The notes under the pieces were generated by a model. The model made no database searches and had not been told where the DNA came from. It was given only the letters and a program-made list of their open reading frames with translations. This document shows, piece by piece, positions 7,360 to 17,481 of a stretch of 21,858 nt of DNA (its first letter is position 1; every line of letters begins with the position of its first letter). This DNA is from a virus: positions 1 through 21,858 of the IMG/VR virus record IMGVR_UViG_3300043449_001412. One strand, given 5' to 3'. The position numbers and the translations under genes were made by a program.

Positions 7360-9990
7360 CGGGGCGGCAACGCCTGCGCCAATCAGGAACTTTTCAAGCG
7401 CCGATTTGCCGCCGCTTTGCAGCGCGTCAAGTCCTTGCTGCATCATGCCATGACCACCGGGACGCGAGAGCAACTCAATTGAGTTGTTGATGTCCAAACG
7501 CCCGTTGCCGCCGTTCGCAATCTTGCCTTGCCGGAACGCAAGTATGTCTTTTGCCTGCTGAAGAACGGCGGGATCTGTGTCTGCAATTTTCTGTTCTTTT
7601 GCAGGCATAGCGTTGAAACGCCGCACCAGTTCGCTGGACACAAGACCGTGCCCAGCATTTTCGGCGGCAAACATCGGTAGGTCTGAGCGCGGCGCAATCG
7701 GTGATTCCGGCTTCGCCTCAAAGTCAACGTAGCCGCGTCCTTTTGTCATACCGCTCTTGGTGCGCTCGTAATTGTCTGGATTGCCGGAGAAAGTCGTGGC
7801 GATTTTCTCTTCGTCGGAAGTGGTGAATGGTGTTTTTTCGTCAAAGTTCAGGACATAAGCGCCTCGGCCAGTGTCTATTGCTGCTGTATTGGGATACTCC
7901 TCAAGATGAGCGCGAAGTGTAGGCGCGTCCAGCTTGCCATCGCGTTTTATTGCGAGGTTAGGTCCACCCTCTATCGGAACCTCTGCAATGTTCGGTACGC
8001 CATATTGCCCAAGGAACATGCCACGCCGAGCAGCGGAATAGTCGAGAATGTTCTGTGTGCGGTCGGCTACTTGTCCGCTCTTTCCGATCGGAAGCTCGAA
8101 GCCGGTGGCGCCAGCAACATTTGTCTCCAAAGGCTTTGCAATTCCATCCGGCCCAGGCAATGGCTGGAATGCGCCTTGCACTGGCTGCGTGGCGATCGTT
8201 TTCAATCCAAGACGACGGTTGATGATGTCGTGGCCCTGCTCGTCCTTGAACGTCGCAAGCGCCGACGACGAGAAGGCGTCACGGCTACCGGGCGTTGCTT
8301 CAAGCAACTCTTGGAAGTCTCCGACGCCATTGCCGCCGATCGCCTCGACCGGCTGGTAACCCATGATCGAATTAAACTCGGCGCCAGGGTAGAATTTCTT
8401 TGACGCGCTTTCTCTGCCGCGAATGGCGCGCAAATCCTCAAGCGTCTTGGCCGACGCCATCAGGTTGCGCTCGTCAGCCGCTGTCATGGGGATTGGGTTG
8501 TTTGCTCCGAACATACCAACGGTCGGGGTCAGGTTCTGCAACTTGTCGCCATAACCCGAACGCTGGAGAATGTCCGCATATTGCGGTTGCGTAAACAGCG
8601 TCTCAAAATCCGGCGTTCCCGCGATCATGTCGCGCGTCAGCATCCCTCGTTGCAGCAAATCTCGCGCCGGTATGCCCGTATTGTTCTGCAACTCCATCAA
8701 GGGCATCGCGACAGACCAGCCGGTCTCCTGTACTTCTGCAGGCGTCAGGCCGATCTTCTGGCCCGCCTCGCGCTGGCGGGCGCTCATGGCAAGATAGCCG
8801 GGTGAAAAACCGGCGTTGCCTTCCGCAAGCTGCTTGGCGGTGGGCGACTGACGGAACAGCCCCTGGTCGACGCCGGAGACGTTCGCCATCCAGGCGTCGT
8901 TCGTCACCTTGTAAACGTCGTCGGCAAGGTTTCTGAAGAAACTGTCCACCTTCGGCCCGGACAGAACAGTCTTCAGCGGGTCTTGTGACGAAAGCGCACG
9001 CACCGTATTCGGCACCCAAGCGCCAAGCACGCTGTCCTCGCCTTTGTTGCCCTGCACAGAACGGCCCATCACCGCCTTGATCACGGTCGGGTCTGTCGGA
9101 CGACCAGCGGAGTTCCACTCGCGCCAGATGTTCAGAGCGTTGGTCAGGTTGCTCTCGACGCTCGTCTGGGGGCTCGTCGCAGCAAGAAGCGCTGCAAACC
9201 TCGGCGCATCCTCCTTGCCAAAGACGTCAAGGAGCGCCTGCGTCGATCCGCGATACCAACCCAGTTTTGGCGCGCCCGCTTTAGACAGCGAAGCAAACTG
9301 CGCCGCAGACGGGATAACATCAAGAAGCCGCTTCATCGGCTCGATCATGCCTGGGTTCCGAGCGATGATCTCTAGTTCGTTCGGCAGAAGAAACTTCGCG
9401 GTCTGGTTGAACGTCGGGTCGGCTGCGCGAAGATCCGCGATAATGTTGCCCGCCTTGTCCGAAAGGCCGGTCTTCTGCATGCGGGCAATTTCCTGCGTGG
9501 TCTGGCCGCGAACCGGCGCTGTTGCCGGAGCGAACCCGCCAGCAAGCCCGGCGACTTTCTCGCCCTTCGCCAGCATCGGCATTCCCATTGCCGCCAGTTT
9601 TGCAGCCAAAGGCGCCTTCAACATGCCGCCAAGCCAAGCGCCTGCGCCAGTTGCATACAGAGCGTCACCAGCCGCAGACGCGCCCTTCATCAGGCCAGAA
9701 ACAATATTTTTGTCGCGGAAGTCCTGCATCATCGAGGGCTCGTAGCCGCCCTCTGCACGCGGGAACAGGCCAGCCGCCGCTGCGGCGCCGGAGCCAGGAG
9801 CCATGCCCGCGCCCATCAGCGCCAGCCTGTCGCGCATCAATGCGCCAGCCGCGTCGTCCTGCTGCGGAAGCTGATCCTCGCCGCCGTAGAGCTGCGACCT
9901 TACAAAGGAAGACGCACGGTCTTTTGCCGGAACCAACCCCATATACGACGACCACGGGGCGTTGCGAAAAGGAATGCGTTCGTCAGCCAT
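7318..9990 (-). CDS. Large virion/ejection-type protein with glycosylase-like region
   Basis: 890 aa from the ATG at 9990 (a TTG two codons earlier is also possible). Residues about 60-160 are Ala/Gly/Met-rich with hydrophobic helices (AWLGGMLKAPLAAKLAA), suiting membrane passage. Residues about 225-400 contain LAATSPQT, then LSGPKVDSFFRNL and VTNDAWM. This ordered pattern recalls helix-hairpin-helix glycosylase-like domains seen in other phage and plasmid polyproteins. The C-terminal third includes GATGFELPIGKSGQV and many short polar segments. Size, composition and position between candidate small and large terminase genes fit an internal head protein injected with DNA, or a multi-domain effector. 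I know no closely related characterised protein. A hairpin-like CGGTA/TACCG sequence lies just upstream. Confidence 0.75.
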   Translation of the reverse strand: MADERIPFRNAPWSSYMGLVPAKDRASSFVRSQLYGGEDQLPQQDDAAGALMRDRLALMGAGMAPGSGAAAAAGLFPRAEGGYEPSMMQDFRDKNIVSGLMKGASAAGDALYATGAGAWLGGMLKAPLAAKLAAMGMPMLAKGEKVAGLAGGFAPATAPVRGQTTQEIARMQKTGLSDKAGNIIADLRAADPTFNQTAKFLLPNELEIIARNPGMIEPMKRLLDVIPSAAQFASLSKAGAPKLGWYRGSTQALLDVFGKEDAPRFAALLAATSPQTSVESNLTNALNIWREWNSAGRPTDPTVIKAVMGRSVQGNKGEDSVLGAWVPNTVRALSSQDPLKTVLSGPKVDSFFRNLADDVYKVTNDAWMANVSGVDQGLFRQSPTAKQLAEGNAGFSPGYLAMSARQREAGQKIGLTPAEVQETGWSVAMPLMELQNNTGIPARDLLQRGMLTRDMIAGTPDFETLFTQPQYADILQRSGYGDKLQNLTPTVGMFGANNPIPMTAADERNLMASAKTLEDLRAIRGRESASKKFYPGAEFNSIMGYQPVEAIGGNGVGDFQELLEATPGSRDAFSSSALATFKDEQGHDIINRRLGLKTIATQPVQGAFQPLPGPDGIAKPLETNVAGATGFELPIGKSGQVADRTQNILDYSAARRGMFLGQYGVPNIAEVPIEGGPNLAIKRDGKLDAPTLRAHLEEYPNTAAIDTGRGAYVLNFDEKTPFTTSDEEKIATTFSGNPDNYERTKSGMTKGRGYVDFEAKPESPIAPRSDLPMFAAENAGHGLVSSELVRRFNAMPAKEQKIADTDPAVLQQAKDILAFRQGKIANGGNGRLDINNSIELLSRPGGHGMMQQGLDALQSGGKSALEKFLIGAGVAAPSAGLAATREDQRR

Positions 9991-11094: not shown

Positions 11095-11466
11095 TCACTT
11101 CAAAAAACGCACCTTGTAGGTCGTCTGGTCGATCAAAGCGACGATCTCGTCGATGATGTTCTGCAGGTGGCTGTCGGCGCAGATCGCCGCTCGGTTCTTG
11201 CCGATCCAGCCGTCGAGTTCCTTCAGCAGGGACATCGGCGTCTCGGCGCCGTGCAGCTCGTCGGGGTAGTCGGTCAGCAGACCGTAGCGGCCCTGGTAGG
11301 CCTCCGCGAACGTGTCGGCCAGCGGGACGATGTCCTTGTAGAAGCCGCGCAGAGCCATGTGCAGGGCAAAAGAGTTGGTCCGCAGGTGCAGGATGTGCGC
11401 GATCGTGCGGGCGTGAAAGCAGCGCGAAACAAGTTCGGCGGCGAGTTGGGGGGAGTGGTCGGCCAT
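11095..11466 (-). CDS. DUF5856-like protein (ferritin/Dps-like helical fold suspected)
   Basis: 123 aa, all helical. The segment AHILHLRTNSFALHMALRGF followed by YKDIVPLADTFAEAYQGRYG has the histidine/acidic spacing of Dps- or ferritin-like four-helix bundles. It matches my recollection of DUF5856 proteins common in phages. No enzymatic role is known to me. It is the first gene of the leftward structural operon. There is no obvious ribosome binding site before the ATG at 11466, so it may be leaderless or start slightly differently. The control region with an inverted repeat lies directly upstream. Confidence 0.75.
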   Translation of the reverse strand: MADHSPQLAAELVSRCFHARTIAHILHLRTNSFALHMALRGFYKDIVPLADTFAEAYQGRYGLLTDYPDELHGAETPMSLLKELDGWIGKNRAAICADSHLQNIIDEIVALIDQTTYKVRFLK

Positions 11467-12524: not shown

Positions 12525-13000
12525 ACGCCCGCCTCGACCCAGCGCTCTGCGATCTCGTCGAGCGCCCGGCGCACGGCGCACAGTTCGTCGAGCGTGCGAG
12601 GATAGCGACCGCGACCTTCGATGATCCCGCGCTCGAGCGGCCCCATGATCGGCGCGAGCGTTCTGTATCGCCGGATCACCTGCCGCTCGAACTGGTCGAG
12701 GCGCGCCGACGACAGTCTGCGGTCGACTGCGCCCGCGTCAGGATCCTGACGGTCGTGCAAGCCACTGACGATCGCCCGGTAGGCGCGTGAGAGGGCTGTC
12801 CATTTCTTCGACGTCGCGAACTGGTCGATGGTGATTCTGGACTGCGCCGCAAGCTTGGACATGACACAACGCACGGGCGCCTCCTGACTGTCGAGAGGGT
12901 CCATTGCAGCGTCGAAAAAGCGCCCCGGCAAATAGCGCTGCTGGCTCCTGCCAAGCTCTCGTTTCGCAAATTTCGCAGTTTCGCAACATCCTCTAGACAT
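12521..13000 (-). CDS. Hypothetical basic helical protein
   Basis: Up to 159 aa from an ATG at 13000. The C-terminal 110 residues look coherent and helical (SKKWTALSRAYRAIVSGLHD, later LDELCAVRRALDEIAERW). The first 30 codons include the TTTCGC repeat triplet at 12962-12984, so the real start may be the ATG at 12904 (MDPLDSQEAPVR), leaving the repeats as an upstream control site. Neither start has a good ribosome binding site. No family recognised. Being next to the repeat block, it may regulate or use it. Confidence 0.55.
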   Translation of the reverse strand: MSRGCCETAKFAKRELGRSQQRYLPGRFFDAAMDPLDSQEAPVRCVMSKLAAQSRITIDQFATSKKWTALSRAYRAIVSGLHDRQDPDAGAVDRRLSSARLDQFERQVIRRYRTLAPIMGPLERGIIEGRGRYPRTLDELCAVRRALDEIAERWVEAGV

Positions 13001-13248
13001 ATACTCAGGCTTGACTATACGGAGGGACTCAAAGAGGCTGACGCGAAATTGCGAAAAGTGCGAAAGATTATAAATAGGAATATATATAAGATATATATTT
13101 CAGTATATTACCACCCATTTTCCTGGATTTTTCGTTTCGCAAACCTTTTGCGAAATCGTGCGAATTTCGCGCGAAATTTTCTTGCCAAGCTTATGTTCCA
13201 GGGCGACACGTTTGCGAAATCGTATTTTTCGCGCGAAATTTTGCGAAA
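12962..13248. repeat. TTTCGC/GCGAAA iteron cluster with AT-rich core (candidate origin or multi-site operator)
   Basis: Fourteen exact copies of TTTCGC or its complement GCGAAA occur in 287 bases, starting at 12962, 12971, 12979, 13043, 13051, 13060, 13135, 13150, 13165, 13171, 13214, 13227, 13233 and 13243. Between the second and third groups, 13066-13110 is almost pure A and T and would melt easily. Repeated protein sites flanking an AT-rich segment are the classical design of replication origins. A repressor-binding array or a partition site are alternatives. No credible gene occupies 13001-13305. Confidence 0.75.
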
Positions 13249-13250
13249 AG

Positions 13251-13277
13251 AAAAAGGCGCCCGGAGGCGCCCCTTTT
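13251..13277 (-). terminator. Intrinsic terminator of the leftward small-gene operon
   Basis: GGCGCC arms at 13256-13261 and 13266-13271 around a CGGA loop, followed on the minus strand by a T-rich run (TTTTTCTTTT). On the plus strand it is followed by TTTT, so it may act in both directions. It lies 28 bases after the stop of the 73-aa gene. Confidence 0.8.
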
Positions 13278-13305
13278 AGCTAGTCACACACCCGACCCGC
13301 CGACC

Positions 13306-13527
13306 CTACGCGAGCCCCCGGTCGATCGCCCGCATGAGCCTTCGGAAGGCCGTCTCGTATGGGCACGGCCTCGACTGGTAGAGCCACCCCTTGAGCGTAT
13401 TGAACCGCACGCCGAGCGCCTCCGCAGCCTCCTCTGCGCCGCCGTATCCGTTGGCCTCGATCCATGCCCGGAGGACGTCGCGGAACGGTCTCGGATCGTT
13501 TTCCCAGTCGTGATATGAAGCGGCCAT
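13306..13527 (-). CDS. Helix-turn-helix (Cro/CI-like) protein
   Basis: 73 aa. Residues about 30-62 (EEAAEALGVRFNTLKGWL followed by ETAFRRLMRAID) match the helix-turn-helix of small phage repressors or excision-type regulators: a short helix with Ala-Leu-Gly-Val turn, then a recognition helix. The ATG at 13527 follows a purine-rich GAAGG with 9 bases of spacing, and AGGAG lies further upstream in the conserved ACAGGAGAG context. It is the last gene of the leftward operon before the terminator and adjacent to the repeat cluster, making it a good candidate for a repeat-binding regulator. That target is inferred. Confidence 0.75.
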   Translation of the reverse strand: MAASYHDWENDPRPFRDVLRAWIEANGYGGAEEAAEALGVRFNTLKGWLYQSRPCPYETAFRRLMRAIDRGLA

Positions 13528-13563
13528 GCTGGTCTGCCTTCTCTCCTGTTGGTGGACAAGCTA

Positions 13564-13595
13564 GGGGCGCCTCGATCTGGACAATCGGGCGCCCC
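13564..13595 (-). promoter_or_regulatory. GTCCAG-loop hairpin, variant 1 (upstream of helix-turn-helix gene)
   Basis: On the minus strand CGAT and ATCG enclose a TGTCCAG loop, and GGGGCGCC/GGCGCCCC arms form an outer stem with one bulged base. A second, weak GTCCAC-containing copy follows before the ACAGGAG ribosome binding site. It is the most divergent member of the hairpin family. Confidence 0.6.
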
Positions 13596-13602
13596 GTCTG
13601 CG

Positions 13603-13770
13603 TTACGGCTTGGCGAGGTAGACCGCCGAGCCCTTCACGATTTTGCAGCCGGGAAAGAACCGGCGCACCTGACTGACGCTGTCGAAGTGCACCTTGGCGA
13701 ACCATTCCCTATTGTAGAGGTATAGGTCGAACGCGGTCGGCGTCTTCTGCGTCTTCGTCTTCTTCGTCAT
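13603..13770 (-). CDS. 55-aa basic protein
   Basis: 55 aa, beginning MTKKTKTQKTPTAFDLYLYN. A lysine/threonine-rich start is followed by an aromatic, mixed helix-strand core containing EWFAKVHFDS and FFPGCKIVKG. GGGAG lies seven bases before the ATG, and the gap to the preceding gene is 12 bases, so it is cotranscribed with it. It does not have its own GTCCAG hairpin, unlike its neighbours. Below normal gene-calling length but well supported. No family recognised. Confidence 0.75.
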   Translation of the reverse strand: MTKKTKTQKTPTAFDLYLYNREWFAKVHFDSVSQVRRFFPGCKIVKGSAVYLAKP

Positions 13771-13782
13771 GTCGTTTCTCCC

Positions 13783-13998
13783 TTAGCCGCGATCAAACCA
13801 AGCCACGCAGGCCTCGTTCTGGTCGGTGTCGCGGATACAAACAATTTTTTCCGCGACGGGCGTGAAGGCCTCCAATTCGTTCGCCAGTTCCCGAAGGATG
13901 CGGGCGCACTCGAACGCGGTGCCGGTAGACACGGCCTTGTCGCCGTCGACTGGGTCGAAGGCGTCACTGTCACAATCTATGAGAATACGTAGTTGCAT
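13783..13998 (-). CDS. Small acidic protein
   Basis: 71 aa, beginning MQLRILIDCDSDAFDP. It is strongly acidic, with an alternating beta-strand start and a helix rich in Ala/Glu/Leu (ARILRELANELEAF), ending with a strand. The ATG at 13998, rather than any upstream in-frame ATG, is set by AGGAG nine bases before it (AGGAGAAAGAAG) and by the hairpin 5 bases further upstream. No family recognised. It belongs to the leftward set of hairpin-led small genes, whose proteins are probably host-takeover or accessory factors. Confidence 0.8.
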   Translation of the reverse strand: MQLRILIDCDSDAFDPVDGDKAVSTGTAFECARILRELANELEAFTPVAEKIVCIRDTDQNEACVAWFDRG

Positions 13999-14015
13999 CT
14001 TCTTTCTCCTGTGTA

Positions 14016-14033
14016 GGAGGGCTGGACCCCTCC
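14016..14033 (-). promoter_or_regulatory. GTCCAG-loop hairpin 2
   Basis: Six-bp perfect stem (GGAGGG/CCCTCC, read on the minus strand) around GTCCAG. It lies 5 bases before ACAGGAG's AGGAG and controls the 71-aa gene. The closing pair is G-C rather than the more common T-A. Confidence 0.85.
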
Positions 14034-14036
14034 GCA

Positions 14037-14059
14037 GAGGGCGCCGCTTGGACGCCCTC
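14037..14059 (-). other. GC-rich hairpin after the 161-aa gene
   Basis: Arms GAGGGCG and CGCCCTC with a nine-base loop, located a few bases upstream of hairpin 2. It follows the stop of the 161-aa gene directly. It has no T-run, so RNA protection or processing is as likely as termination. Confidence 0.6.
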
Positions 14060-14069
14060 GCCGGAACTG

Positions 14070-14555
14070 TCAGCGCACCGTAAACTCGTTTCGCTTGGCG
14101 AGGCTCCAAGCGGCGTTCCACAGTTCAAAGTCTTCGGGCTCTTCTCCCGTCTCCGGGTCTTCGCCCTCACACTCGCGCCCCACGACCTTTGTGAAGGCCT
14201 CGTCCATTGCCATGTTGGCGTCGCAGAAGTCGTGCGAGTGGCAGACGTTCGGGTTGTCCTGCGCGCGGTTGCGCTGAACGACTGCCACCATTTGCTCCAC
14301 GGTCAGCCAATCTCGCAGGACGCGCGAAAAGGCCTTGGACAGTTTCAGCACCTTGTCCTCGAACACGACCGCGCGATGCCACGCCGCCTCGAAGTCGTCC
14401 AGCCACTCGCGCTGGCTGTTCGTCAGTTCCGCGCCGTGTGCGTGGCGCAGGTGTTCCACTGGCAGTGATTCGTCGAAGTCGTTTGCGACGAGCCACTCGC
14501 CATAAATGTCACTGAGCCGGTCGCTGTCTTTGATGTTGTCGAAGTCGCGTTGCAT
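14070..14555 (-). CDS. Hypothetical acidic protein, 161 aa
   Basis: 161 aa from the ATG at 14555 (MQRDFDNIKDSDRLSDIYGE), placed nine bases after AGGAG. A helical N-terminal half (EWLDDFEAAWHRAVVFEDK, later SRVLRDWLTVEQMVAVVQRN) is followed by a cysteine/histidine segment CHSHDFCDANMAMDEAF and an acidic loop. The CHSHDFCD cluster could bind a metal ion. No family recognised. Related-looking small acidic proteins with such clusters are common among phage early genes. It is the second gene of the leftward operon. Confidence 0.8.
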   Translation of the reverse strand: MQRDFDNIKDSDRLSDIYGEWLVANDFDESLPVEHLRHAHGAELTNSQREWLDDFEAAWHRAVVFEDKVLKLSKAFSRVLRDWLTVEQMVAVVQRNRAQDNPNVCHSHDFCDANMAMDEAFTKVVGRECEGEDPETGEEPEDFELWNAAWSLAKRNEFTVR

Positions 14556-14577
14556 CTGTTTCTCCTGTTTGCTGTGT

Positions 14578-14595
14578 GAAGGTCTGGACACCTTC
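14578..14595 (-). promoter_or_regulatory. GTCCAG-loop hairpin 3
   Basis: Six-bp stem GAAGGT/ACCTTC with loop GTCCAG read on the minus strand. It is followed by an 11-base A/C-rich spacer and ACAGGAG before the 161-aa gene. The stem sequence is unrelated to those of hairpins 2 and 4. Confidence 0.88.
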
Positions 14596-14599
14596 GCGA

Positions 14600-14621
14600 G
14601 GGGCGCCTTGTGAGACGCCCC
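14600..14621 (-). other. GC-rich hairpin after the 107-aa gene
   Basis: Arms GGGGCG and CGCCCC with a ten-base loop, a few bases upstream of hairpin 3 and just after the stop of the 107-aa gene. It occupies the same relative position as the hairpin at 14037-14059. Confidence 0.6.
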
Positions 14622-14632
14622 CACCGAAATTG

Positions 14633-14956
14633 TCACTTGTCGAGGATCAGAGCGCGCTCCAACCCGATACGCGCTGTCTCGTCGTTGATCGCCTTGAGGA
14701 TTGCATCCCAGTCGTCGGTGCTGACGATGTCCTGTTCGGTCATCGTGCCGTCGCCCGTGCGATACAGCGTGAAACGCGCCGTGTCGGGGTAGTCGCGCTT
14801 TTGCGGATCAAGGTAGTCGACGAAGATCGCCAGCGAAATCGCCTCGTTGCAGAAATTGGGGCATGCGTCGTTGCACCATGACGTGTCGACGAAACCCTCT
14901 GGGATGTTTGGCATCGTGGCCGGGTCGAAGTCTGGAAACTCTTCTCTGTAGGTCAT
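14633..14956 (-). CDS. Hypothetical acidic protein, 107 aa
   Basis: 107 aa, beginning MTYREEFPDFDPATMPNIPE. It contains WCNDACPNFCNEAISLAIFV, with three closely spaced cysteines that could bind a metal, then a strand-rich middle (DTARFTLYRTGDG) and a C-terminal helix with charged residues. The ATG follows AGGAGAGACAG. It is the first gene of the leftward operon, driven by a recognisable promoter at 15003-15031 with a hairpin at the transcript start. I recall similar uncharacterised proteins in other phages but cannot name a function. Confidence 0.82.
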   Translation of the reverse strand: MTYREEFPDFDPATMPNIPEGFVDTSWCNDACPNFCNEAISLAIFVDYLDPQKRDYPDTARFTLYRTGDGTMTEQDIVSTDDWDAILKAINDETARIGLERALILDK

Positions 14957-14978
14957 CTGTCTCTCCTGTTCATTTCAA

Positions 14979-14996
14979 GCGCCTCTGGACAGGCGC
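14979..14996 (-). promoter_or_regulatory. GTCCAG-loop hairpin 4 at the predicted 5' end of the leftward transcript
   Basis: Six-bp stem GCGCCT/AGGCGC around GTCCAG on the minus strand. Its first base is 7 bases after the -10 box, so the mRNA should begin with this hairpin. It is followed by an 11-base spacer and ACAGGAG. Confidence 0.88.
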
Positions 14997-15002
14997 CCCC
15001 CC

Positions 15003-15031
15003 TATATAGCGGATCGCTACACGACAGACAA
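15003..15031 (-). promoter_or_regulatory. Sigma70-type promoter of the leftward small-gene operon
   Basis: On the minus strand, TTGTCT (15031-15026) and TATATA (15008-15003) are separated by 17 bases. Four of six bases match consensus in each box, and the spacing is ideal. The predicted start is near 14996, at the base of hairpin 4. Confidence 0.65.
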
Positions 15032-15045
15032 GCGATTTTTGGCTA

Positions 15046-15074
15046 TTGACTTCATCTGTGACTAGCGCCATTCT
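15046..15074 (+). promoter_or_regulatory. Sigma70-type promoter of the rightward small-gene operon
   Basis: TTGACT (15046-15051, five of six matches) and CATTCT (15069-15074, three of six) are separated by 17 bases. The predicted start near 15081 coincides with the base of hairpin 5. The two promoters lie back to back. Confidence 0.5.
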
Positions 15075-15081
15075 GTCGCCT

Positions 15082-15097
15082 GTCCTGTCCAGAGGAC
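15082..15097 (+). promoter_or_regulatory. GTCCAG-loop hairpin 5 at the predicted 5' end of the rightward transcript
   Basis: Five-bp stem GTCCT/AGGAC (extendable by a wobble pair) around GTCCAG, followed after six bases by the AGGAG of the 65-aa gene. Confidence 0.85.
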
Positions 15098-15114
15098 GAA
15101 CACAGGAGACTGCA

Positions 15115-15312
15115 ATGCTAATTGTTCGTGAAATCATCTCAGCTTTCGAGATGCCCATAATTGGCCGCGCCAAAAACATTCATGAGGCGCTGCAAATGAT
15201 CCCGAGCGCGTATCACTCGCTCGAAGAAGATCGCGACCACCCCGGCCATTACGACCTGATGAATCTGCGCGGCCAGCAGTTCACGATTGAACCAGAAAAG
15301 AACGCAGCGTGA
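15115..15312 (+). CDS. Small protein, 65 aa
   Basis: 65 aa, beginning MLIVREIISAFEMPIIGRAK. An N-terminal amphipathic stretch is followed by polar, histidine-rich sequence (EEDRDHPGHYDLMNLRGQQF). The ATG at 15115 is chosen over upstream in-frame starts because AGGAG lies 8 bases before it in the ACAGGAG context and hairpin 5 precedes that. It is the first gene of the rightward operon. Function unknown; no family recognised. Confidence 0.78.
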   Translation: MLIVREIISAFEMPIIGRAKNIHEALQMIPSAYHSLEEDRDHPGHYDLMNLRGQQFTIEPEKNAA

Positions 15313-15324
15313 TGCTTGCGTATT

Positions 15325-15362
15325 GCGGGCGGGCTACGGCCCTCCCGCGATGCAGAGGCATC
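15325..15362 (+). other. Tandem intergenic hairpins
   Basis: A GC-rich hairpin (GCGGG and CCCGC with inner GGGC/GCCC pairing, 15325-15348) is immediately followed by GATGC/GCATC around AGAG (15349-15362). Both lie between the stop of the 65-aa gene and hairpin 6. Confidence 0.6.
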
Positions 15363-15368
15363 CCCTCT

Positions 15369-15386
15369 CGCTCTGTCCAGAGAGCG
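15369..15386 (+). promoter_or_regulatory. GTCCAG-loop hairpin 6
   Basis: Six-bp stem CGCTCT/AGAGCG around GTCCAG. AGGAG of the 85-aa gene follows after six bases (CAATAC). Confidence 0.9.
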
Positions 15387-15403
15387 CAATACAGGAGAAG
15401 ACA

Positions 15404-15661
15404 ATGCAGATCATCGAAACAAAATATATCGGCGCGACAAATCATCGCGGCTCTCGCGTTTCCGCCAAGGCGTCTGGCTGCGGAGCGAAAGTGGTCGTTT
15501 CGTGGGATTACGAACTGAACGCCGAAGCGAACCACAAACGCGCCGCCCACGCCCTCATGGAAAAACTCGACTGGGTCGGAAAATATGTTGGCGGTCACAC
15601 AAAGACCGGCATGGCGTTCGTTTGCGCCGACGACAGGTTCTCATACTCGGTCGAGCGCTGA
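15404..15661 (+). CDS. Small conserved phage protein, 85 aa
   Basis: 85 aa, beginning MQIIETKYIGATNHRGSRVS. The first half is a beta-rich segment (GATNHRGSRVSAKASGCGAK, then VVVSWDYELNAEANH), the second a helix and strands ending FSYSVER. I recall similar short uncharacterised proteins (KY.G.TN.RGSR followed by a Y.LN motif) in phages and Proteobacteria. AGGAG lies eight bases before the ATG. It is the second gene of the rightward operon. Function unknown. Confidence 0.85.
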   Translation: MQIIETKYIGATNHRGSRVSAKASGCGAKVVVSWDYELNAEANHKRAAHALMEKLDWVGKYVGGHTKTGMAFVCADDRFSYSVER

Positions 15662-15671
15662 CCTTTGCGTT

Positions 15672-15720
15672 TTTGGGGCGGGTTACGGCCCTCCCCAAAG
15701 CCGGAACGATCAGCCGTTCC
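15672..15720 (+). other. Tandem intergenic hairpins with a decayed GTCCAG-like copy
   Basis: TTTGGGG and CCCCAAA arms with inner GGG/CCC pairing (15672-15699) are followed by GGAACG/CGTTCC around ATCAGC (15703-15720). The second stem is identical to that of hairpin 8, but the loop differs from GTCCAG, as if the element had been duplicated and altered. Confidence 0.65.
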
Positions 15721-15740
15721 CCGCGCTGTCCAGAGCGCGG
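15721..15740 (+). promoter_or_regulatory. GTCCAG-loop hairpin 7
   Basis: Seven-bp stem CCGCGCT/AGCGCGG around GTCCAG, the longest stem of the family. AGGAG of the next gene follows after five bases (CACAC). Confidence 0.9.
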
Positions 15741-15757
15741 CACACAGGAGAGAAAAC

Positions 15758-15955
15758 ATGCGTATTGTCCCTATTCAGCAAATCGCCTCCGCCCGCAATG
15801 GCCGTTATCAGGTCTGGGCGAGGTGGGATGACGACGCGATGATCTATGAACTGTTCGCGAGCGCCGCCGCCGACGACTACGTAGGATGCGCCGCCGACAT
15901 GCACGAGGCGCGCGACATTGCGCAGCGACTGATTCGCGAGTGGCAGTCGTTCTGA
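15758..15955 (+). CDS. Small protein, 65 aa
   Basis: 65 aa, beginning MRIVPIQQIASARNGRYQVW. Three beta strands (YQVWARWDDDAMIYELFAS) are followed by a C-terminal helix (MHEARDIAQRLIREWQSF), an arrangement seen in many small phage regulators. AGGAG lies seven bases before the ATG. No family recognised. Third gene of the rightward operon. Confidence 0.8.
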   Translation: MRIVPIQQIASARNGRYQVWARWDDDAMIYELFASAAADDYVGCAADMHEARDIAQRLIREWQSF

Positions 15956-15965
15956 CCTTTGCGTT

Positions 15966-15993
15966 TTGCGGGCGGGCTCACGCTCTCCCGCAA
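15966..15993 (+). other. Intergenic GC-rich hairpin
   Basis: Perfect seven-bp arms TTGCGGG and CCCGCAA around a loop. The sequence from the stop codon to the first arm (ACCTTTGCGTTTTG) is shared with the gap after the 85-aa gene, so these gaps are related copies. Confidence 0.65.
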
Positions 15994-15996
15994 GGC

Positions 15997-16014
15997 GGAA
16001 CGGTCCAGCGTTCC
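15997..16014 (+). promoter_or_regulatory. GTCCAG-loop hairpin 8
   Basis: Six-bp stem GGAACG/CGTTCC around GTCCAG. AGGAG of the 96-aa gene follows after seven bases. The closing pair is G-C. Confidence 0.9.
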
Positions 16015-16032
16015 ATCAAACAGGAGAATGCA

Positions 16033-16323
16033 ATGCCGACAGAATCTTTTGTCTGTTACGGAGAAGGAAAAACCGCGCAAGAAGCCTTCGACAGCGAGCG
16101 CGCTGCGTTTCGTGAGGCGTGGGGCGGGCAGGAATACACTGGCACAATTGCGGAGAAGGATTCCTTCGTGATGATCGACCTTCCCGCAGGCGAGGACGCC
16201 GAGGCGTATGCCTATAGTCTGATCGACGCCAACGATCCACGCATAGCCGACAAATACGGGCCTGCGGGCTGCATTGAGGTAGGCGGCGACGAGTGGCTGT
16301 TCTTTGGTCTGTCCATTGGTTGA
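16033..16323 (+). CDS. Small acidic protein, paralog A
   Basis: 96 aa. It contains GKTAQEAF near residue 12, YTGTIAEKDSFVMI in the middle and DKYGPAGCIEVGGDEWLFFG at the C-terminus. The next gene encodes a clear relative with the same three blocks, so they arose by tandem duplication. Acidic and mixed alpha/beta. I recall uncharacterised bacterial and phage proteins with this YTG-IAEK-SFV pattern, but no function. AGGAG lies seven bases before the ATG at 16033. Confidence 0.85.
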   Translation: MPTESFVCYGEGKTAQEAFDSERAAFREAWGGQEYTGTIAEKDSFVMIDLPAGEDAEAYAYSLIDANDPRIADKYGPAGCIEVGGDEWLFFGLSIG

Positions 16324-16371
16324 AAGCATGACGCCGGGGGCGGGTGGCGCCGCCCCCCCCGGGATGCTTTC
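16322..16371 (+). other. Intergenic long hairpin overlapping the stop codon
   Basis: GAAAGCAT (16322-16329, starting inside the stop codon) pairs with ATGCTTTC (16364-16371). It encloses a very GC-rich inner stem (CCGGGGG with CCCCCGG). This is the strongest intergenic stem in the rightward operon and could slow or stop transcription. Confidence 0.7.
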
Positions 16372-16375
16372 CCCT

Positions 16376-16393
16376 CGCCCTGTCCAGAGGGCG
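16376..16393 (+). promoter_or_regulatory. GTCCAG-loop hairpin 9
   Basis: Six-bp stem CGCCCT/AGGGCG around GTCCAG. AGGAG of the 98-aa gene follows after nine bases. Confidence 0.9.
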
Positions 16394-16413
16394 TGAACAC
16401 ACAGGAGAAAAAA

Positions 16414-16710
16414 ATGGGTGCGCAGATATTCTCAACCCAAGCCCCCGGCAAAACAGCGCAGGAGGCTTTTAACAACGCAGTCCGCGAGGCGCAGCATGAA
16501 TACGGCCACAGCGGATACACCGGGTCGATCGCGGAGAAAGACTCCTTCGTCATGATCAAAGACCCAATCCCCGGCGACATGAGCGTGAGCGAATACGCCT
16601 ACAAGCTTGTGATGGATCAAGACCCGCGCATCGACGACAAATGGGGGCCTGCGGGCTGTATTCATCTGGGCGGCAATAACTGGCTCTTTTTCGGCATCGC
16701 CTCGTCCTGA
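16414..16710 (+). CDS. Small acidic protein, paralog B
   Basis: 98 aa, beginning MGAQIFSTQAPGKTAQEAF. It shares GKTAQEAF, YTG.IAEKDSFVMI, YAY.L, DPRI.DK and GPAGCI..GG..WLFFG with paralog A, roughly half of all positions by eye. The ATG at 16414 follows AGGAG with an A-rich spacer; an in-frame start 21 bases earlier would lie inside hairpin 9 and is rejected. It is the last gene with a GTCCAG hairpin. Function unknown. Confidence 0.85.
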   Translation: MGAQIFSTQAPGKTAQEAFNNAVREAQHEYGHSGYTGSIAEKDSFVMIKDPIPGDMSVSEYAYKLVMDQDPRIDDKWGPAGCIHLGGNNWLFFGIASS

Positions 16711-16718
16711 CCCACCCA

Positions 16719-16757
16719 CGCCCCGCTCGCGGTTGATTCTGCGGGCGGGTTTTCTTT
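16719..16757 (+). terminator. Intrinsic terminator after the rightward hairpin operon
   Basis: CCCGC (16722-16726) pairs with GCGGG (16741-16745), with a bulged extension, and is followed by GGGTTTTCTTT. The T-rich tail makes termination likely, though some read-through into the next gene is possible because it has no other obvious promoter. Confidence 0.6.
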
Positions 16758-16783
16758 ATCCTTCGTCTCACAGGAGACCGACC

Positions 16784-16999
16784 ATGCGTAAACTGATTTT
16801 CGCCGCCCTTGCGCTTGCCCCCGGCGTGGCGCAGGCGGGGTACCTCGACCGCGTGCCGACCGACAATGCCTACCACTATGACCGGCGCGACGACCCCATG
16901 CCGCGCGATTACGAGCGCCCCTACCAGCCACCGCCGGTCGAGCAAAAGTGCATATCCATTCCGCTGGACGACGGTCGGTCTGTCATCAAATGCCGGTAA
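16784..16999 (+). CDS. Small exported protein
   Basis: 71 aa. MRKLIFAALALAPGVAQA is a classical Sec signal peptide with an AQA cleavage site, leaving a mature peptide of about 53 residues. The mature part is rich in Tyr, Asp, Arg and Pro (DRRDDPMPRDYERPYQPPP) and has two cysteines (EQKCISIP and IKCR), which could form a disulfide in the periplasm. ACAGGAG precedes the ATG. It keeps the ribosome binding site of the preceding genes but not the hairpin. No family recognised. Confidence 0.8.
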   Translation: MRKLIFAALALAPGVAQAGYLDRVPTDNAYHYDRRDDPMPRDYERPYQPPPVEQKCISIPLDDGRSVIKCR

Positions 17000-17193
17000 C
17001 CGACCCGCAGACGCGGCAGGCGCGCAGCCGGGCAGCTCGGATTGCTGAAGGGGGGCGTGCGGTGCATGTCGTCCTGACGCCGGACGAGGCTCGCGCCCTC
17101 GACATGATCAAGCAAAGTCTCAGCCTCGGAGGCCGGGACGCGATCGGCGCCGCGCTCCTGAGAACGGCGTCGAGATTGCCGAAAAAGCGCTGA
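16990..17193 (+). CDS. Ribbon-helix-helix-like protein
   Basis: 67 aa from the ATG at 16990 (MPVTDPQTRQARSRAAR). The basic N-terminus is followed by a strand (AVHVVLTPDEARALDMI) and helices (GGRDAIGAALLRTASRL), the pattern of ribbon-helix-helix DNA-binding proteins. The start lies within the last codons of the exported-protein gene, overlapping it by 10 bases, so translation is coupled. An upstream in-frame ATG is less likely. It may be an autoregulator or a repressor for the operon; the target is unknown. Confidence 0.7.
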   Translation: MPVTDPQTRQARSRAARIAEGGRAVHVVLTPDEARALDMIKQSLSLGGRDAIGAALLRTASRLPKKR

Positions 17194-17253
17194 ACTGAGC
17201 GCCGCGCATTGACTTGACCCTGGCCCAGGCGCGTCCAGGCGGCGCAAAATTCT

Positions 17254-17297
17254 ATCGCCCCGCGTTCACACCTATATGTGCGCGGGGCGATTTTTTT
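17254..17297 (+). terminator. Strong intrinsic terminator
   Basis: Eleven-bp perfect stem (ATCGCCCCGCG at 17254-17264 with CGCGGGGCGAT at 17281-17291), with a further CACA/TGTG inner stem and a run of seven T residues. It ends the rightward operon and sits at the tail of the convergent leftward operon, which it may also serve weakly. Confidence 0.9.
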
Positions 17298-17481
17298 ATT
17301 GTGGCGACGTATCCAATACGAAACGAAGATACATCACCTCGTCCCGGCATTCCTCGATAACTTCTTCCGCCCGCGCCAGATCGACCTGCAAATCGTGCGC
17401 CCTCCGCGCCAGCTCGACATGCTCAAGGCGATTTTTGTGCAGTTTTTTCCATATCGCCTGTTCGACTTCGACCGTTCCCAT
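17296..17481 (-). CDS. Small coiled-coil protein
   Basis: 61 aa, beginning MGTVEVEQAIWKKLHKNR. It is helical with repeated Glu/Leu/Ala and a probable coiled coil (LARRAHDLQVDLARAEEVIE). GGAG lies seven bases before the ATG. It starts 10 bases after the primase stop and is the last gene of the leftward replication operon. No family recognised. Confidence 0.75.
   Translation of the reverse strand: MGTVEVEQAIWKKLHKNRLEHVELARRAHDLQVDLARAEEVIEECRDEVMYLRFVLDTSPQ

What the first reader, a model, noticed from the sequence alone, without database searches (positions are those of the whole stretch)
13564..16393. A family of nine hairpins with an invariant GTCCAG loop before small-gene ribosome binding sites
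Seen directly: on both strands outward from 15030, the sequence before nine genes contains a perfect 5 to 7 bp stem around the same loop. Examples are CGCTCT-GTCCAG-AGAGCG, GGAACG-GTCCAG-CGTTCC, GAAGGT-GTCCAG-ACCTTC and GGAGGG-GTCCAG-CCCTCC. Stem sequences are unrelated, so pairing and loop are conserved while the stem is not, the hallmark of a selected RNA structure. After 5 to 11 unpaired bases comes ACAGGAG and the start codon. The loop's UCC could pair with GGA of the ribosome binding site as a pseudoknot, or the loop could be read by a phage or host RNA-binding protein. I know of no described element with this design.
Basis: partly seen in the sequence, partly recalled or inferred. Interest (0 to 1): 0.92.

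Follow-up and report, generated by a model that had tools for sequence, protein, structure and literature searches.

The report
Phage gene leaders with shared hairpin loop
In a virus of bacteria, eight neighbouring small genes each start with a tiny RNA hairpin whose six-letter loop is always the same while its stem is different every time, which points to a shared, apparently undescribed switch that acts on the messages of a whole block of genes.

Summary
Eight hairpins with loop GTCCAG and perfect 5-7 bp stems stand before eight small genes, in gene orientation on both strands. Each is followed by ACAGGAGA, 5-7 nt and ATG. Shuffled windows give at most two copies of any hexaloop; here there are eight. 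All six stem pairs covary (48/48 cells paired, 20 double changes). The claimed ninth copy (13577) is bulged, with off-register spacing. None of the 18 other GTCCAG sites has a stem of 5 bp or more.

The genes form two divergent operons. By-eye promoter boxes would put the first hairpin of each at the 5' end of its mRNA. Internal copies follow a larger GC-rich hairpin. Homologues of one gene pair in other phages lack the leader, so it goes with the operon.

A covariance model found no convincing copy in about 1,180 Pseudomonadota genomes (best 28 bits, background; window copies 45-56). One unrelated phage contig has a 42-bit copy, flanked by genes with TTCCAG hairpins; I call it probable. Rfam has no match.

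Best explanation: an RNA operator read through its loop by a trans-acting factor that controls translation or mRNA stability. The selected hairpin is well supported; the factor is inferred. The loop/Shine-Dalgarno pseudoknot is only 3 bp and unsupported.

The parts
15081..15098 (+). hairpin H2, (T)GTCCT-GTCCAG-AGGAC(G); first gene of rightward operon, starts a few nt after the by-eye -10 box
   Evidence: (47.8 bits); an alternative fold is preferred in silico
15369..15386 (+). hairpin H2, CGCTCT-GTCCAG-AGAGCG
   Evidence: 49.3 bits
15721..15740 (+). hairpin H2, CCGCGCT-GTCCAG-AGCGCGG
   Evidence: 51.1 bits
15997..16014 (+). hairpin H2, GGAACG-GTCCAG-CGTTCC
   Evidence: 53 bits; an alternative fold is preferred in silico
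16376..16393 (+). hairpin H2, CGCCCT-GTCCAG-AGGGCG
   Evidence: 55.6 bits
14979..14996 (-). hairpin H2, GCGCCT-GTCCAG-AGGCGC; first gene of leftward operon, at predicted mRNA 5' end
   Evidence: (45.4 bits)
14578..14595 (-). hairpin H2, GAAGGT-GTCCAG-ACCTTC
   Evidence: 48.4 bits
14016..14033 (-). hairpin H2, GGAGGG-GTCCAG-CCCTCC
   Evidence: 49.1 bits; an alternative fold is preferred in silico
13564..13595 (-). degenerate ninth copy: GTCCAG in a bulged stem merged with a larger hairpin; Shine-Dalgarno 15 nt from ATG
   Evidence: not found by model R1
15115..15312 (+). small gene 1 of rightward operon (65 aa, no family)
15404..15661 (+). small gene 2 (85 aa; phrog_3199, unknown function)
15758..15955 (+). 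small gene 3 (65 aa)
16033..16323 (+). small gene 4 (96 aa), paralogue of gene 5 (50% identical)
16414..16710 (+). small gene 5 (98 aa); relatives in Rhodococcus, Gordonia and Caulobacter phages
16722..16759 (+). intrinsic terminator closing the rightward operon
14633..14956 (-). small gene 1 of leftward operon (107 aa)
14070..14555 (-). small gene 2 of leftward operon (161 aa; phrog_21393, unknown function)
13783..13998 (-). small gene 3 of leftward operon (71 aa)
15046..15074 (+). promoter-like boxes TTGACT-17-CATTCT of the rightward operon (by eye; the consensus scan found none)
15003..15031 (-). promoter-like boxes TTGTCT-17-TATATA of the leftward operon (by eye; the consensus scan found none)
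15311..15362 (+). larger GC-rich hairpin H1 ahead of the H2 of gene 2
   Evidence: fold
15671..15700 (+). larger GC-rich hairpin H1 ahead of the H2 of gene 3, followed by GGAACG-ATCAGC-CGTTCC (possible dead H2 copy)
   Evidence: fold
16322..16371 (+). larger GC-rich hairpin H1 ahead of the H2 of gene 5
   Evidence: fold

Best explanation
Each leader carries a cis-acting RNA operator: a short hairpin whose stem only has to pair and whose hexaloop GUCCAG is read as a sequence. One trans-acting factor, probably a phage-encoded or host RNA-binding protein (less likely a small RNA with a CUGGAC seed), is proposed to bind the loop. The hairpin edge lies about 19-27 nt before the start codon, at the rim of the 30S footprint and 3-9 nt from the ACAGGAGA site, so binding would set translation and/or mRNA lifetime for all eight genes together. 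The first hairpin of each operon would also cap the mRNA 5' end. Shown: existence, positional rule, covariation, loop invariance, operon restriction. Inferred: the factor, the sign of the effect, and the point of action.
For: Eight canonical copies in leaders and none elsewhere in the window. Shuffle control maximum 2. Full covariation with an invariant loop, including between the leaders of two paralogous genes whose stems differ (GGAACG versus CGCCCT). Orientation follows the gene on both strands, which favours action in RNA over duplex DNA. By-eye promoter boxes place the first hairpin of each operon within a few nt of the start. A second, otherwise unrelated phage contig repeats the design: 42.3 bits against a background best of 28.2 in about 1,180 genomes, with TTCCAG-loop hairpins before the neighbouring genes and a promoter-proximal first hairpin.
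Against: No factor is identified. The one small basic protein modelled (13603-13770) gave no fold match. Three of the eight leaders are predicted to prefer another fold when folded alone. Homologues of one gene pair in other phages do without the leader, so it is not needed for those genes as such. The second phage is a single contig; from the scan counts alone it has a chance expectation of roughly 0.02-0.1 before its neighbours are considered.
Confidence: 0.6

Rival explanations
1. mRNA stability and insulation element without a dedicated factor: the hairpin protects the 5' end of primary or processed transcripts and keeps the ribosome binding site open, with the larger H1 hairpin protecting the 3' end of the upstream message. 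The loop would be conserved only because it is a structurally favoured hexaloop.
For: First hairpins lie near the predicted transcript start; internal leaders have the H1 then H2 arrangement. 5' hairpins as shields against decay are established knowledge (not tested here).
Against: Does not explain why all eight loops are letter-for-letter identical while stems are free. GUCCAG is not among the special hexaloops of the standard energy tables (my recollection). H2 formation is not dominant in three leaders.
Confidence: 0.2
2. Loop/Shine-Dalgarno pseudoknot: UCC of the loop pairs with GGA of AGGAG and closes the ribosome binding site, perhaps with a ligand, as in preQ1-I or SAM-II type riboswitches.
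For: UCC:GGA is possible in all eight, and linkers of about 6-12 nt to GGA are long enough to span a 6 bp stem.
Against: Only 3 bp; both sides invariant, so no covariation; flanking loop bases G, A, G do not extend the pairing; ACAGGAGA also occurs before a window gene that has no hairpin (16784).
Confidence: 0.07
3. Antitermination or transcription-level RNA signal (nut- or put-like): the hairpin in nascent RNA is bound by RNA polymerase or a phage factor to pass the upstream H1 hairpins.
For: Repeated along operons that hold strong hairpins and end in one good terminator.
Against: Such signals normally occur once or twice per operon, not before every gene, and have no fixed tie to the ribosome binding site (established knowledge); here the distance to the start codon is tightly kept.
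Confidence: 0.06
4. DNA-level element, for example a cassette recombination site or single-strand hairpin target, that only happens to sit before genes.
For: Genes in the block look like a swappable small-gene array; a possible dead hairpin copy (GGAACG-ATCAGC-CGTTCC) beside a live one suggests turnover.
Against: Stems differ completely, so no shared duplex sequence remains for a recombinase; the fixed register to the Shine-Dalgarno site and start codon is unexplained; none occur at gene ends or elsewhere.
Confidence: 0.04

Closest known systems
[quoted passage not shown]
   Same: Many copies in one phage, just upstream of start codons of non-structural genes, overlapping the Shine-Dalgarno site; about half of the copies have an inverted repeat upstream; function unresolved.
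   Different: SAS is a conserved 13-nt linear sequence (GGGATAGGAGCCC), and ESAS repeats are conserved in sequence and contain promoter hexamers. Here the stem sequence is free, only the loop is fixed, and it lies in the transcript.
T4/RB69 gene 43 translational operator (PMC3014915)
   Same: A phage hairpin beside the ribosome binding site whose loop is read by an RNA-binding protein to control translation.
   Different: One gene, autogenous, UAAC loop, top of the hairpin identical between the two phages; here eight genes share one loop and no stem.
T4 RegA and RegB (PMC3014915)
   Same: One phage factor acting on the initiation regions of many early mRNAs; RegB cuts GGAG, which occurs in every leader here.
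   Different: RegA sites lack RNA structure and RegB is inhibited by it; neither uses a hairpin with a fixed loop.
Iron-responsive element (eukaryotic; own knowledge)
   Same: Variable stem with a fixed hexaloop in the 5' leader of several mRNAs, read by one protein.
   Different: Different loop (CAGUGN), a bulged C, different domain of life; analogy only.

Membership tests
SAS/ESAS of cluster K mycobacteriophages | 13-nt consensus GGGATAGGAGCCC within a few nt of the start codon | tested here: not met
   Leaders read ACAGGAGA with no GGG...CCC frame.
SAS/ESAS of cluster K mycobacteriophages | 17-bp imperfect inverted repeats of conserved sequence that contain -35/-10 hexamers | tested here: not met
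   Arms are 5-7 bp with unrelated sequences; promoter-like boxes were seen only ahead of the first gene of each operon.
Any Rfam family (release 15) | Covariance-model match at or above the gathering score | tested here: not met
   Best hits in 13000-17300 are far below gathering; Mu-gpT-DE 17.4 bits against 49, resting on CCCUG/CAGG and the Shine-Dalgarno/ATG only.
H-type pseudoknot that closes the Shine-Dalgarno site | Conserved loop/Shine-Dalgarno pairing supported by covariation | tested here: inconclusive
   3 bp UCC:GGA possible in all; both sides invariant.
Intrinsic terminator | GC-rich stem followed directly by a U run | tested here: not met
   None of the eight H2 hairpins is in the terminator list; the only good one in the block closes the operon at 16722.
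Protein-bound translational operator (T4 gp43 type) | Cognate protein that binds the loop and represses translation | not testable with these tools
   Needs binding and reporter experiments.

The most novel reading that the evidence does not exclude
A phage operon-wide regulon in RNA: a previously undescribed hairpin class (variable stem, fixed (G/U)UCCAG hexaloop, fixed register to the ribosome binding site) read by one unknown RNA-binding factor that switches eight early/accessory genes together, and present in at least two unrelated phages.
Probability: 0.4. Interest if true: 0.8.

Novelty: new variant of a known kind. Interest (0 to 1): 0.6.

Why it matters
If read by one factor, this would be a DNA phage using one RNA hairpin code to control many genes at once, which is rare: the known phage hairpin operators that I can name serve one or two genes. 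The loop is a ready bait for finding the factor, and an orthogonal variable-stem/fixed-loop leader would be a useful translation-control part. It also gives a structural counterpart to the unexplained SAS/ESAS elements.

Tried and rejected
Searches that led nowhere: megablast of the window against phages, no match; close relatives of the primase in viral contigs, none. Homologues of the small gene pair 16033/16414 in Finch, Stormageddon, Caulobacter C1 and IMG/VR contigs: leaders lack the hairpin. Stretches around homologues of 15404 in Roseobacter CRP-207 and CRP-5, Rhizobium RHph_I20 and Caulobacter GB2A, and both parts of Pseudomonas phage Rollin: no recurring loops. Homologues of 14070 were found but their leaders were not inspected.

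L133 (TAATCT-GTCCAG-AGATTA) looks to lie inside a reading frame; L140 is a lone copy with no recurrence. The bacterial match L312 (28 bits) looks coding and the other top hits I inspected lack the loop.

Considered and dropped: intrinsic terminators; Mu-gpT-DE RNA; a stop-codon UGAC:GUC switch (in silico in a minority of leaders, not conserved); the basic 55-aa protein 13603-13770 as the loop reader (model pLDDT 76, no fold match); hairpin-before-SD as a generic trait (none of the other loci scanned had a loop recurring before Shine-Dalgarno sites with three different stems).
Full report
WHAT IS THERE. The window is a 21.9-kb virus record with phage genes: terminase, head-tail adaptor/portal, DNA primase. 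Its nearest isolates are far away: portal 39% identical to Pseudomonas phage Rollin and about 25% to Rhizobium, Sinorhizobium and Roseobacter phages; primase about 27% to Sinorhizobium and Rhizobium phages. An alphaproteobacterial host is therefore likely but not shown.

THE HAIRPINS. Between 13.9 and 16.4 kb two divergent operons of small genes leave a promoter-like region near 15030. Eight of these genes have, in their own orientation, a perfect 5-7 bp stem around GTCCAG, then 3-9 nt, then ACAGGAGA, 5-7 nt and ATG. The motif is enriched (26 against 10.3 expected), but the real signal is the hairpin: all eight copies with a stem of at least 5 bp are in leaders, and the other 18 have stems of at most 3 bp. 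In 100 shuffles no non-palindromic hexaloop reached more than two such hairpins. On the alignment all six pairs vary on both sides, 48 of 48 cells pair, and 20 cells are double changes; sliding the partners destroys this. The paralogous genes 16033 and 16414 (50% identical) have different stems but identical loop and Shine-Dalgarno. The ninth copy (13577) is degenerate, and gene 13603-13770 has none.

SURROUNDINGS. By eye, TTGACT-17-CATTCT (+) and TTGTCT-17-TATATA (-) end within about 10 nt of the first stems, so the hairpin would lie near the very 5' end of each mRNA. The tool's stricter consensus scan found no promoter, so this is inference. Internal leaders hold a larger GC-rich hairpin (H1) and then the GTCCAG hairpin (H2). 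The rightward operon ends in a good terminator at 16722. In isolation folding, H2 dominates in five leaders (P of about 0.6-1) but not in 15087, 16003 and 14022; the covariation is the stronger evidence that H2 is the selected form.

ELSEWHERE. Relatives of the small gene pair in actinobacterial and Caulobacter phages and in IMG/VR contigs lack the leader, and stretches around relatives of 15404 show no recurring loop, so the element follows the operon and not the gene. A covariance model of the eight copies scores them at 45-56 bits. Its best match in 398 Pseudomonadota, 385 class-level and 397 order-level genomes (overlapping draws, about 1,180 in all) is 28.2 bits. The top ones I inspected are coding or lack the loop, so 28 bits is background. 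One viral contig, L288 (24.5 kb, only the terminase about 32% similar), holds GGATCG-GTCCAG-CGATCC-gcaac-ACAGGAGA-ccacg-ATG at 42.3 bits. The genes on either side have TTCCAG in hairpin loops, and the first of these again lies just after a promoter-like TTGACA-17-TATATG. From the 22 pattern hits about 0.02-0.03 would be expected to have such a stem by chance; with the neighbours I regard L288 as a probable second case with loop (G/U)UCCAG. No other locus in 3.3 Mb of held DNA had it before a start, apart from the lone L133 that the same loop pattern had brought in.

HOW IT PROBABLY WORKS. Free stem and fixed loop mean that something reads the loop. Strand orientation and the fixed register to the ribosome binding site place the action in the mRNA near initiation. 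I therefore favour a trans-acting factor, most likely an RNA-binding protein, that binds the loops of all eight leaders and sets translation or stability together. Factor, sign and step are inferred. A stability/insulation role without a factor is the main rival; the pseudoknot has 3 bp and no covariation.

KNOWN OR NOT. Rfam gives nothing, and a full-text search for GUCCAG with 'hairpin loop' returned three papers, which by title and abstract concern microRNAs. In architecture the nearest is SAS/ESAS of cluster K mycobacteriophages, whose role is still called unclear in 2024, but the defining sequences are absent. In mechanism the nearest is the T4/RB69 gene 43 operator hairpin. I rate it a new variant of a known kind (protein-read or structured phage leaders), with an unusual operon-wide use.

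LIMITS. One phage and one probable second phage; no experiment; two of the viral scans were truncated; metagenome contigs could not be scanned; the CM E-values are rough.

Noticed in passing
window 12962-13250: AT-rich intergenic stretch with about 14 copies of TTTCGC/GCGAAA on both strands, iteron-like; possible replication origin or regulator sites.
   Followed up: partly
window 16033-16323 and 16414-16710 (+): Paralogous small genes (50% identical) with relatives at about 47-52% identity in Rhodococcus phage Finch, Gordonia phages and the terminal repeats of Caulobacter jumbo phages: a small protein family of unknown function spread across very different phages.
   Followed up: partly
window 15700-15745 (+): GGAACG-ATCAGC-CGTTCC directly before the live hairpin of gene 3 has the same stem as the live hairpin of gene 4: perhaps a dead copy, hinting at turnover of leaders.
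   Followed up: no
L327 about 7955-8000: A relative (59%) of the first leader gene of L288 has a long hairpin (GAAGGTATGGTTCGC-AAAGAA-GCGAATCATACCTTC) in the same place before its start, with a quite different loop.
   Followed up: no
window 11095-11466 (-): 123-aa protein matching Pfam DUF5856 and PHROG 858 (annotated as starvation-inducible transcriptional regulator).
   Followed up: no
window 13306-13527 (-): 73-aa helix-turn-helix-like protein, weakly CII-like (phrog_101, E 2.6e-4), behind the degenerate ninth hairpin.
   Followed up: no
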